A program made the position numbers and the translations under genes. Below are positions 23,530-29,686 of a DNA stretch of 64,000 nucleotides, piece after piece (position 1 is the first letter of the stretch; each line of letters opens with the position of its first letter). The DNA is from Nitrososphaerota archaeon (GTDB lineage: Archaea > Thermoproteota > Nitrososphaeria > Nitrososphaerales > Gagatemarchaeaceae). The stretch covers positions 2,629 through 66,628 of the forward strand of contig JAFLZH010000001.1 in assembly GCA_029785615.1 (NCBI GenBank). Reading direction: 5' to 3'. Under the pieces are notes generated by a model that made no database searches, was not told the origin of the DNA, and saw only the letters and a list, made by a program, of their open reading frames with translations.

Positions 23530-24378
23530 TTGCAGAGGGAAGTAGCAGGGTCGAAGGCGCCATCGAAGGCCGAACTTGTGAAGCGGGTCTGCGACTTCCT
23601 GAAGGAGAACTCCACTTCACGTGTCACCCTCGCGACCCTCGGTGAGAGGTTCTGTCTCAGTCCGTTCCACCTGCAGAGGACCTTCGCCGAGGTGATGGGT
23701 ATGTCCCCCCGCGAGTATCTAGAGGAGTGCAGGCTCAGCCTCCTCAGGTCAAGGCTGGCCAGCGGCGAGCCCGTGGTCAACGCCCTGAGGGGGACGGGCT
23801 ACTCCGCGCAGAGCTGGCTCTACGAAGACTCCCGGAGGAGGCTCGGGATGACCCCCGCGACCTACAGGAAGGGAGGGGCCGGGGCATGCGTCGGCTACGC
23901 GATCGGCGATTCGCCTATCGGCCGCATCCTCCTGGCCAGCACGGACCACGGCGTGTGCTCGGTCAAGGCAGGTCGGAGCGACGCTGAGCTTCTGAAGGCG
24001 CTTGTCGCCGAATTCCCCAGGGCCGAGATAGCAAAGTCGGACGGCGCGAAGAACTACCTCGACACTCTGCAGAATCATCTTCGCGGCCAGGAGGCGAAGT
24101 TTCCCTTGGACATAAGAGGCACCGACTTCCAGATGCGGGTCTGGACCGCATTGCGGCTCATCCCTCTTGGGGAGACGAGGTCCTATCAGGAGGTGGCAGA
24201 GATGGTAGGCAAGCCGCGCGCGGTCAGGGCAGTGGCGAACGCCTGCGGCTCCAACCCCGTCCCCCTGATAATACCATGCCACAGGGTGATCCGGAAGGAC
24301 GGGAGCCTGGGTGGCTACGGCATGGGGATCGGAAGGAAGAGGGCCCTCCTCGCGAAGGAACGGGGCCTGGCCGCATAA
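23530..24378 (+). CDS. AraC-type HTH fused to O6-alkylguanine-DNA alkyltransferase (Ada-like, lacking Ada zinc domain)
   Basis: HTH FCLSPFHLQRTFAEVMGMSPREYLEECRL; MGMT active site IIPCHRVIRKDGSLGGYGMG. Confidence 0.9.
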   Translation: MQREVAGSKAPSKAELVKRVCDFLKENSTSRVTLATLGERFCLSPFHLQRTFAEVMGMSPREYLEECRLSLLRSRLASGEPVVNALRGTGYSAQSWLYEDSRRRLGMTPATYRKGGAGACVGYAIGDSPIGRILLASTDHGVCSVKAGRSDAELLKALVAEFPRAEIAKSDGAKNYLDTLQNHLRGQEAKFPLDIRGTDFQMRVWTALRLIPLGETRSYQEVAEMVGKPRAVRAVANACGSNPVPLIIPCHRVIRKDGSLGGYGMGIGRKRALLAKERGLAA

Positions 24379-25853: not shown

Positions 25854-25965
25854 CGGGCCCGGTGGGATTTGAACCCACGACCTCTGCGAGCCTAGGCTCC
25901 CTACAGCTTAGAAGGCTGCCACGCTATCCGTACTCCGCTCCCTCATGGATCTGCGCTACGGGCCC
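25854..25965 (-). tRNA. tRNA-Arg(TCT), 112 nt, with two apparent internal insertions
   Basis: Minus strand: acceptor GGGCCCG/CGGGCCC, anticodon arm GCAGC-CTTCTAA-GCTGT, T-arm GTGGGTTCAAATCCCAC; D-loop and variable region both overlong. Confidence 0.85.
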
Positions 25966-26040
25966 ACAGGGAGCCGCTCCATGTTTCGACATAAGCTTTA
26001 CCGCCTTGCCAGCGAGAGGCGGGAATAGGAAGGTTTTACC

Positions 26041-27432
26041 ATGTCCAGCGTCCCTCTGCGGCCGTTGGCCGCATCCCAGCCGCGGCTATTTGGAACCAAC
26101 GGGGTCAGGTTCGTGCCTGGCGTATCTCACGACCTCGATTTCGCCATCAGCCTAGCGGAAGCCATCGGGACCTACTTCGGGACTGGCGAAGTGCTGCTTG
26201 GCAGGGATGGCCGCCTCTCCGGGCCGGCCTTGGCGAACGCGGCCGCGTCCGGCCTGCTCAGCTCGGGGCGGGACGTTGCCGAGGCGGGGCTCGTGCCCAC
26301 CCCCGCGCTCCAGTATGCGGTGAAGGCCCTGGGGTACAGGGGCGGCGTGATGGTCACAGCCTCCCACAACCCGCCTCAGTACAACGGCCTGAAGGTGTCC
26401 GGGCCCGACGGCGTCGAGGTCCCGAGGCTCGACGAGCAGCGGATAGAGAAGATCTACTTCGAAAAGTCCCAGACGAAGGCCGATTGGAAGACCATCGGCG
26501 TGGCGAGACAGGAGGCGTCGGTGGTGAGGACCTACCAGAAGGGGGTCCTCTCCAGGGTTGACGCCAAGGCGATCGCGGCCAGGAAGTTCACGGTGGTCAT
26601 GGACCTGGGCAACGGGGCGCAGTCGGTCGCCGCCCCCTACATCGTCGAATCCCTCGGGTGCAAGGTGATCACCCTGAACTCGACGGTCGACGGGAACTTC
26701 CCGGGGAGGGGGCCCGAGCCCACCCCCGACACCCTGAAGGACCTCTCGGCGGCCGTGAAGGCGGTGGGGGCAGACCTGGGGGTCGCCTACGACGGGGACG
26801 GTGACAGGTCCATCTTCTGCGACGAAGACGGAAGGATCCTATGGGGGGACCAGAGCGGCTGCCTGGTGGCCGACTTCGTCCTCGACAGGCACCAGGGCGG
26901 GACCCTCGTAACTTCGGTCGCCTCCAGCCAAGCGGTGGAGGCTGTGGCAAAGAAGCATGGGGCGAAGGTTCTGCGCACAAAGGTCGGGGCCGTGGAGATC
27001 GCTCGGACGATCATCGAACGGAACGCCGTCTTCGGCTTCGAGGAGAACGGCGGGTGCCTCTATCAGCCCCACATCGCGGTCCGCGACGGCGGGATGACCA
27101 CGGCGCTGATGCTCGAATGCCTCGCTAGGAAGGGCATGTCGCTGTCCAAGGTGCTGTCGTTCGTCGTCCCGAAGTACTTCCAGGCAAAGACCAAGGTCGA
27201 GGTCGGCCCCAAGAGGGTGGATGCTGTGATGAGGGCCGTCGAGAAGCAGGCGGAGGGGGAGGTAGAGAAGGTAGACGGCCTCAAGGCATGGACCGACGCC
27301 CACTCCTGGGTCCTGGTCAGGCCCAGCGGGACGGAACCGATCGTGAGAATCTTCGCTGAGTCGGACTCCCAGGAGGGGGCAGACCAGCTGGTCAAGAGGT
27401 TCGCGAAGGTAGCAAAGTCAGCTTCTGTGTAG
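26041..27432 (+). CDS. Phosphoglucosamine/phosphomannomutase family
   Basis: GVMVTASHNPPQYNGLK, AYDGDGDRSIFCDEDG, RPSGTEPIVRIFAE. Confidence 0.92.
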   Translation: MSSVPLRPLAASQPRLFGTNGVRFVPGVSHDLDFAISLAEAIGTYFGTGEVLLGRDGRLSGPALANAAASGLLSSGRDVAEAGLVPTPALQYAVKALGYRGGVMVTASHNPPQYNGLKVSGPDGVEVPRLDEQRIEKIYFEKSQTKADWKTIGVARQEASVVRTYQKGVLSRVDAKAIAARKFTVVMDLGNGAQSVAAPYIVESLGCKVITLNSTVDGNFPGRGPEPTPDTLKDLSAAVKAVGADLGVAYDGDGDRSIFCDEDGRILWGDQSGCLVADFVLDRHQGGTLVTSVASSQAVEAVAKKHGAKVLRTKVGAVEIARTIIERNAVFGFEENGGCLYQPHIAVRDGGMTTALMLECLARKGMSLSKVLSFVVPKYFQAKTKVEVGPKRVDAVMRAVEKQAEGEVEKVDGLKAWTDAHSWVLVRPSGTEPIVRIFAESDSQEGADQLVKRFAKVAKSASV

Positions 27433-28384: not shown

Positions 28385-29686
28385 CTACGCGCTCAGCCTC
28401 TTCAGCTTCCTGGCGAACTCCTTCGCAATCCTCTCCGCCCTGGCAGCCGACGGCGCTTCAGCGGAGACCCTGACTACATCCTCGGTCCCCGACGGGCGCA
28501 TCAGGACCCAGGCCCGCTGGGGGAGGACTATCTTCAGGCCGTCCGTAAGCTCAGAGAGCTCGTACTCCCGCGCCAGGACCCTGAGCGCCTTCTCCGCCTT
28601 CCGCTTCGGTAGCCGGAGCGCGACCCTCTCTTGGTGGTAAGCCGGGACCGACGCATACATGGCGTCGCCTTCCTCCCTCAGGGCCCTGATGATCGTCAGC
28701 GCCGCCAGCAACGAGTCCCTGCAATAGTTGAAGTCCCCGTCTATCAGCCCCCCGCTGCTCCCTTCTCCTCCGAAGCGGGCGCCCTTCTCCTTCATCGCCC
28801 GCACCACGTTGGCTTCCCCAACCTTGGACCTGAACACGCCGCAGCCCAACTCCCTGGCAACTTCGTCCACCGCCTGGGTGGTGTCCACCGAGACGACGAC
28901 CTTCTTCTCGCCCGTCTCCCGGACCAGACGCCGGAGAGCGAGGGTGAGCATGTAGTCTCCGGACCTCTTCCTCCCGGCGGAGTCCACTATCACGAGCCTG
29001 TCCCCGTCGCAGTCGAAGCCCAGGCCTATGGCGCACCCCTTCTCCTTCACAGTCCGGCGCAGGAGCCCGAGGCCGTCGGCGACGGGGTCAACGATGCGAG
29101 TGAAGACCGAGTAGCAGTCGTTCATCGAGGCGACCTCGCAACCCAGGCGTCGCAGGAGGGGGACGGCGTGCGATATGGCTGCCCCCCCTCCGAGGTCGAC
29201 CGCCACCTTGACGCCTTCACAGGAGCCCTCCCCGTACCTCTCGGCCAGGCTGTCGACGTAGCCCGGTCTCCCCGCCTCCCTCAGCCAGCCATGAGGGGGC
29301 AGCTTTCCCGGGGCCGACCTCCTGCCGACCACCTTGTCGAAGGTCTCTTTCCCGATCCCGGCTCCCCCCACGATGAACTTCAGGCCGTTGAACTCGGGTT
29401 CGTTGTGCGACGCGGTGACCATCACGGCTGGGGCGTTCTTCACCCGGCTCTCTCTGAACAGGGCGGGAGTGGAGATGATACCATAGTCGAGCACGGTCCC
29501 CCCAAGGGACATGATGCCCGCGGCCACGGCCCTACACATCGCCGGCCCGGTCTTCCTCGTGTCCCTGGCGAGGAGGAACTCGCTCCCGCCGGCGGCCTCG
29601 GCGAAGTTGGCAGCGAACCTCGCGACGTCCGGCAGTGCGATGTCCTGGTTGAGAATACCTCTGATGCCGCTCAGAGAGGCGATCAA
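28385..29686 (-). CDS. Phosphoglucosamine/phosphomannomutase family (second paralog)
   Basis: AVMVTASHNEPEFNGLKF, GFDCDGDRLVIVDSAG, MRPSGTEDVVRVSAEA. Confidence 0.92.
   Translation of the reverse strand: MIASLSGIRGILNQDIALPDVARFAANFAEAAGGSEFLLARDTRKTGPAMCRAVAAGIMSLGGTVLDYGIISTPALFRESRVKNAPAVMVTASHNEPEFNGLKFIVGGAGIGKETFDKVVGRRSAPGKLPPHGWLREAGRPGYVDSLAERYGEGSCEGVKVAVDLGGGAAISHAVPLLRRLGCEVASMNDCYSVFTRIVDPVADGLGLLRRTVKEKGCAIGLGFDCDGDRLVIVDSAGRKRSGDYMLTLALRRLVRETGEKKVVVSVDTTQAVDEVARELGCGVFRSKVGEANVVRAMKEKGARFGGEGSSGGLIDGDFNYCRDSLLAALTIIRALREEGDAMYASVPAYHQERVALRLPKRKAEKALRVLAREYELSELTDGLKIVLPQRAWVLMRPSGTEDVVRVSAEAPSAARAERIAKEFARKLKRLSA

What the first reader, a model, noticed from the sequence alone, without database searches (positions are those of the whole stretch)
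25854..25965. tRNA-Arg(TCT) with two extra internal segments, in the D-loop and after the anticodon arm
Canonical acceptor, anticodon and T arms are present but the gene is 112 nt. The D-loop has extra sequence flanked by ATCC...GGAT. The anticodon-arm/variable region carries ~17-19 nt with a GAGCC-TA-GGCTC hairpin; removing TAGGGAGCCTAGGCTCG would restore a GCAGC/GCTGC stem. Two non-canonical (bulge-helix-bulge) introns in one tRNA is plausible for Thermoproteota but worth confirming.
Basis: partly seen in the sequence, partly recalled or inferred. Interest (0 to 1): 0.6.

Follow-up and report, generated by a model that had tools for sequence, protein, structure and literature searches.

The report
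Arginine tRNA gene with two introns
This is a working arginine tRNA gene of an uncultured Nitrososphaeria archaeon that is interrupted by two very short introns, a known kind of archaeal gene, and some of its close relatives carry four introns in the same gene, one more than the published maximum of three.

Summary
The gene is on the minus strand (25965→25854, 112 nt) and carries two extra segments. Removing both leaves a perfect 75-nt tRNA-Arg(UCU). No other Arg(UCU) gene turned up in the 91%-complete assembly.

Natural empty sites support this. Arg(UCU) orthologues lack both inserts exactly (L228/L229), one lacks only the D-loop insert (L035), and the genome's own Arg(CCU) gene lacks both (L121). 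Both inserts form bulge-helix-bulge-like folds, and 0 of 400 shuffles score as well. The genome encodes a catalytic EndA subunit with the crenarchaeal loop lysine and a second subunit without the catalytic histidine, as in the broad-specificity (αβ)2 enzyme.

The gene itself is a new member of a known kind. The surprise lies in its relatives: four sites (15/16, 30/31, 37/38, 45/46) are occupied in different combinations, giving 0–4 introns per gene. Nine genes in eight species carry all four; the published accounts read here give three as the maximum.

The parts
25854..25965 (-). tRNA-Arg(UCU) gene, 112 nt, two introns, no encoded CCA
   Evidence: ARAGORN and Rfam hits truncated at 25942
25951..25965 (-). 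exon 1, positions 1-15 (acceptor 5' strand GGGCCCG, U8 A9, D-stem GCGC, A14 G15)
25933..25950 (-). intron 1, 18 nt, D-loop 15/16, ATCCATGAGGGAGCGGAG: h' UCC/GGA, helix C11-G12-C13 with intron GCG, G10 opposite a purine, bulge AG^A
   Evidence: exactly absent from L035, L121, L228/L229; pair tally; unconstrained RNA fold of the precursor shows these pairs
25901..25932 (-). exon 2, positions 16-45 (TAC-GGATA-GCGT-G-GCAGC-CTTCTAA-GCTGT-AG), anticodon UCU at 25912-25910
25882..25900 (-). intron 2, 19 nt, variable loop 45/46, GGAGCCTAGGCTCGCAGAG: h' GAGC/GCUC, central helix CUGU/GCAG (4 bp), bulges AG^G
   Evidence: exactly absent from L121, L228/L229, L203, L225; pair tally
25854..25881 (-). exon 3, positions 46-73 (GTC, T-arm GTGGG-TTCAAAT-CCCAC, acceptor CGGGCCC, G73)
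25990..26000 (-). TATA-like promoter element TAAAGCTTATG, -35 to -25 from the mature 5' end
   Evidence: same element upstream of orthologues in other species; AT-rich elements at a similar distance upstream of most other tRNA genes of this genome

Best explanation
It is a functional tRNA-Arg(UCU) gene, apparently the genome's only one, whose primary transcript contains two ultrashort introns: 18 nt after position 15 in the D-loop and 19 nt after position 45 in the variable loop. Inferred mechanism: each intron folds with its 5' exon into a (relaxed) bulge-helix-bulge, the (alpha-beta)2 splicing endonuclease encoded in this genome cuts both bulges, and the exons are ligated to a 75-nt tRNA-Arg(UCU) that reads AGA. 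Shown here: sequence, borders by comparison with empty sites, folds and enzyme genes. Inferred: transcription, cleavage, ligation and aminoacylation.
For: Empty sites: Arg(TCT) orthologues of two species read GCGCAG|TACGG and GCTGTAG|GTCG without either insert (L228/L229; named MAGs L061/L062); L035 lacks only the D-loop insert; the own-genome Arg(CCT) gene lacks both (L121); an Arg(CCT) gene in another genus has no intron at all (L225, 75 nt). Exons are conserved while inserts vary in length and sequence (15-25 nt and 17-21 nt) across 24 and 30 distinct inserts. Pairing is kept: C11-G, G12-C and C13-G in 24 of 24 D-loop inserts, with U-A/C-G exchange in h'; the 45/46 inserts keep GAG/CUC and GCAG complementary to CUGU or CUGC in nearly all of 30, with C-G/U-A exchange at the fourth h' pair. 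In some relatives the insert cannot be slid, which fixes the sites at 15/16 (L037) and 45/46 (L217). Solver score 34.2 against 27.2 for the next parse and at most 24.0 in 400 shuffles. ARAGORN calls the spliced 75-mer tRNA-Arg(tct). EndA alpha keeps the catalytic Tyr, His and Lys and the loop lysine aligned with A. pernix K44 (loop described in PMC6379350); the second EndA subunit has lost the His. The DNA searches of the own genome gave no second Arg(TCT) gene, and AGA is used 18 times in 4386 codons of eight window genes.
Against: No RNA data. The assembly is 91% complete, so an intronless Arg(TCT) could sit in the missing part. The D-loop motif has only three Watson-Crick pairs in the central helix, with G10 facing A or G in 22 of 24 relatives. 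The central helix of the 45/46 intron uses positions 40-43, so it competes with the anticodon stem, and the unconstrained fold keeps the anticodon stem instead; the order of splicing or refolding is unknown.
Confidence: 0.95

Rival explanations
1. A tRNA pseudogene broken by two small insertions and not expressed.
For: Automatic tools score it poorly and truncate it.
Against: Exons are fully base-paired and conserved across more than 20 species while the inserts vary; relatives show compensatory T-stem changes (GTGGG/CCCAC against GTGCG/CGCAC); a TATA-like promoter is conserved; it is the only Arg(TCT) gene found; the same two sites are occupied in most species of the genus.
Confidence: 0.02
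2. Only the variable-loop segment is an intron; the D-loop segment stays in the mature tRNA as an enlarged D-loop.
For: The D-loop fold is the weaker of the two (three Watson-Crick pairs in the central helix); the segment lies in a loop, so keeping it would not break a stem.
Against: Exact absence of the segment in orthologues; 24 of 24 inserts keep GCG complementary to C11-C13 and A[G/A/T] at the 3' splice site; the same arrangement recurs at 15/16 in Met, Asn, Lys, Glu, Ile, Leu and other tRNAs.
Confidence: 0.03
3. A type II-like tRNA with a genuine long variable arm (the 19-nt segment is retained).
For: GAGCC-TA-GGCTC looks like a variable-arm hairpin.
Against: tRNA-Arg is class I in archaea (general knowledge); the segment is exactly absent in paralogues and orthologues that keep the 5-nt loop AGGTC.
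Confidence: 0.01

Closest known systems
Multiple-intron tRNAs of Thermoproteales (Pyrobaculum, Thermofilum)
   Same: Several BHB introns in one tRNA at non-canonical sites, including 45/46 and 30/31; (alpha-beta)2 endonuclease (PMC4090602, PMC4033280)
   Different: Other lineage; D-arm sites named in PMC4090602 are 20/21, 22/23 and 25/26, not 15/16 (that list ends in 'etc.'); published maximum is three introns per gene (PMC8450103, PMC3218864, PMC4390854), whereas relatives of this gene carry four
Caldiarchaeum subterraneum tRNA-Thr(GGU) with introns at 24/25 and 45/46
   Same: One D-arm intron and one 45/46 intron; presence or absence varies between close relatives (PMC3293823)
   Different: D-arm site 24/25 instead of 15/16; there the change came through recombination in one population, here occupancy differs among many species
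Thaumarchaeota non-canonical tRNA introns modelled in tRNAscan-SE 2.0
   Same: Same broad lineage; two or three introns per gene known, some removable only in order (PMC8450103)
   Different: This genus-level clade is not discussed there; intron load here is higher (43 introns in 23 parsed genes of G031)

Membership tests
Archaeal BHB-intron-containing tRNA | Removing the inserts gives a standard cloverleaf tRNA | tested here: met
   75-nt Arg(UCU), all stems paired; ARAGORN tRNA-Arg(tct) on the spliced sequence
Archaeal BHB-intron-containing tRNA | Strict BHB: 4-bp central helix with two 3-nt bulges at each intron | tested here: inconclusive
   Intron 2: 4 of 4 pairs (one G-U), bulges AG^G and AG^G. 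Intron 1: 3 of 4 pairs, G10 opposite G, so a relaxed form
Archaeal BHB-intron-containing tRNA | Orthologous or paralogous genes without the insert at the same site | tested here: met
   L035, L121, L228/L229, L225
Archaeal BHB-intron-containing tRNA | Cleavage and ligation in the cell | not testable with these tools
   needs RNA
(alpha-beta)2 EndA with Crenarchaea-specific loop | Catalytic subunit with Tyr, His and Lys | tested here: met
   L129 protein aligned with A. pernix 3p1z/3ajv; the mutant 3ajv marks the His position
(alpha-beta)2 EndA with Crenarchaea-specific loop | Loop lysine (A. pernix K44) | tested here: met
   K40 of the L129 protein aligns with K44 (residue role from PMC6379350)
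(alpha-beta)2 EndA with Crenarchaea-specific loop | Second, non-catalytic subunit | tested here: met
   L130 protein is an EndA homologue without the catalytic His
(alpha-beta)2 EndA with Crenarchaea-specific loop | Heterotetramer assembly and activity on relaxed BHB substrates | not testable with these tools
   needs protein

The most novel reading that the evidence does not exclude
This mesophilic or acid-environment Nitrososphaeria family carries the most disrupted tRNA genes known: tRNA-Arg(CCU) and Arg(UCU) with four spliced introns in one gene (15/16, 30/31, 37/38, 45/46), nine genes in eight species, with each site gained or lost separately, and a recurrent D-loop 15/16 intron class with a three-pair central helix and G10 facing a purine.
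Probability: 0.8. Interest if true: 0.55.

Novelty: new member of a known kind. Interest (0 to 1): 0.42.

Why it matters
Taken alone, the gene adds one more two-intron archaeal tRNA, this time in Nitrososphaeria. Its relatives offer more: one tRNA family with 0, 1, 2, 3 and 4 introns in closely related species and intact exons throughout. That is a natural series for asking how tRNA introns are gained and lost, in what order several introns are removed when their folds compete with the tRNA stems, and how relaxed a motif the (alpha-beta)2 endonuclease accepts. It also shows that standard tools truncate such genes.

Tried and rejected
Rfam tRNA search alone misses or truncates heavily disrupted genes. 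The 9-base pattern GTTCRANYC is too common to be useful. A split or permuted tRNA was rejected because all exons are in order within 112 nt. The solver fails on L044/L195 (30/31 insert without an h' pair) and mis-parses a few genes with very long introns, so its counts are approximate. A first tally of the 45/46 inserts crashed on mis-split rows and was redone. Literature searches for 'four introns' in archaeal tRNA genes and for recent intron surveys of this clade found nothing relevant, but Sugahara 2007 is not held, the 2008 and 2009 papers were not read, and GtRNAdb was not available.

Full report
Observation. The minus strand of 25854-25965 reads GGGCCCG TA GCGC AG [ATCCATGAGGGAGCGGAG] TACGGATA GCGT G GCAGC CTTCTAA GCTGT AG [GGAGCCTAGGCTCGCAGAG] GTC GTGGG TTCAAAT CCCAC CGGGCCC G, with the two inserts in brackets. 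ARAGORN and Rfam both detect a tRNA-Arg here but start it at 25942, inside the first insert, using GGG of the insert as a false acceptor. The Rfam score is only 29.6 bits.

Borders from natural empty sites. A search of 60 relatives found the gene in most species of the genus. One orthologue (L035) reads GTAGCGCAG|TACGGATAG, so the D-loop insert is simply missing. Two others (L228, L229) and the named MAGs YF1.bin121 and clean525 (L061, L062) are Arg(TCT) genes lacking both inserts and carrying a different one at the canonical site 37/38. Within the same genome, tRNA-Arg(CCT) (L121) has GCGCAG|TACGG and GCTGTAG|GTCG, again with only a 37/38 intron. An Arg(CCT) gene in another genus of the family (L225) has no intron and is 75 nt long. 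In the window gene the cut points can slide by two or three bases without changing the product. In relatives where sliding is impossible (L037 for the D-loop, L217 for the variable loop) the sites are 15/16 and 45/46.

Fold. In archaeal BHB introns the 5' exon pairs through a 4-bp helix with the 3' part of the intron, and both bulges lie 3' of that helix (PMC4090602 for the general form). For the 45/46 intron the helix is CUGU/GCAG with bulges AG^G and AG^G and an inner stem GAGC/GCUC. Across 30 distinct inserts the inner GAG/CUC never varies, the fourth pair changes C-G to U-A in two inserts, and the central helix is kept in all but single cells. For the 15/16 intron, C11-G12-C13 pair with GCG in 24 of 24 distinct inserts, and UCC/GGA forms the inner stem in the window gene; G10 faces A or G in 22 of 24, so this is a relaxed motif. 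The unconstrained RNA fold of the precursor contains the D-loop motif; it keeps the anticodon stem rather than the 45/46 central helix, because both use positions 40-43. An exhaustive solver gives the two-intron parse 34.2, the next parse 27.2, and at most 24.0 in 400 dinucleotide shuffles.

Function. The DNA searches of the assembly (90.9% complete) gave no other Arg(TCT) gene. AGA occurs 18 times in eight window genes. A TATA-like element lies at -35 to -25 and is shared with orthologues. Two EndA genes are present. One (L129) aligns over its whole length with A. pernix EndA alpha, keeps Tyr, His and Lys, and has a lysine at the place of K44 in the Crenarchaea-specific loop. The other (L130) lacks the catalytic His. 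That is the (alpha-beta)2 arrangement already ascribed to Thaumarchaeota (PMC4090602) and, with the loop, to broad specificity (PMC6379350). The most likely mechanism is therefore ordinary archaeal splicing at two non-canonical sites. Cleavage and ligation are inferred.

Lineage. The neighbouring gene at 26041-27432 is 100% identical to that of MAG YP3.bin16 and about 90% identical to MAGs titled Nitrososphaerota or Thaumarchaeota; YP3.bin16 carries the same tRNA gene letter for letter (L054).

The wider picture. Thirty-six distinct Arg(TCT) and Arg(CCT) genes from the family use four sites, 15/16, 30/31, 37/38 and 45/46, in different combinations. Nine genes in eight species have all four: L133 (TCT) and L137 (CCT) in G031, and CCT genes in G008, G011, G012, G015, G020, G027 and G030. 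Those of G008, G012 and G030 are identical, and G008 is 8% contaminated; G015 is 100% complete and holds the gene on a 1.7-Mb contig. The spliced forms are recognised as tRNA-Arg by ARAGORN. For one of them (141 nt) the solver gives 34.0, against at most 26.5 in 160 shuffles. Published accounts read here put the maximum at three introns per tRNA gene (PMC8450103, PMC4033280, PMC3218864, PMC3293823, PMC4390854). D-loop introns at 15/16 recur in other tRNAs of these genomes (Met, Asn, Lys, Glu, Ile, Leu and others). By the solver, 23 parsed tRNA genes of G031 hold 43 introns and 22 parsed genes of the window's genome hold 21; these are partial, approximate counts.

Verdict. The finding is right in kind and is a new member of a known kind. 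The four-intron relatives and the 15/16 intron class are the part a specialist would want to follow; whether they are new outside the open literature could not be checked here.

Noticed in passing
L211, L212, L216, L217, L218, L219, L052 (Arg CCT), L133 (Arg TCT), L137 (Arg CCT): tRNA genes with four predicted introns (15/16, 30/31, 37/38, 45/46); published maximum found is three.
   Followed up: yes
L015, L023, L089 (own genome); L131, L134, L139, L140, L159 (G031): D-loop introns directly after A14 G15 recur in many tRNAs; the central helix uses positions 11-13 and in several of them position G10 faces a purine of the intron.
   Followed up: partly
window 25854-25942: ARAGORN and Rfam both truncate the gene, taking bases of the D-loop intron as the 5' acceptor strand; automatic annotation of such genomes is likely wrong for many tRNAs.
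   Followed up: partly
L111 (own genome); L149, L186: tRNA-Trp genes with long introns that hold box C/D-like sequences (TGATGA, CTGA); in L149 and L186 a second intron appears in the D-arm.
   Followed up: no
window 25900-25882 with 25907-25901: The 45/46 central helix uses positions 40-43 and so excludes the anticodon stem; splicing would need refolding or a set order.
   Followed up: no
window 26041-27432 (+) and 28385-29686 (-): Two phosphoglucosamine/phosphomannomutase-like genes lie close together beside the tRNA gene (naming by eye from the translations).
   Followed up: no
window 23530-24378 (+): ORF that looks like a fusion of an AraC/Ada-type DNA-binding domain and a methylated-DNA cysteine methyltransferase (naming by eye).
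   Followed up: no
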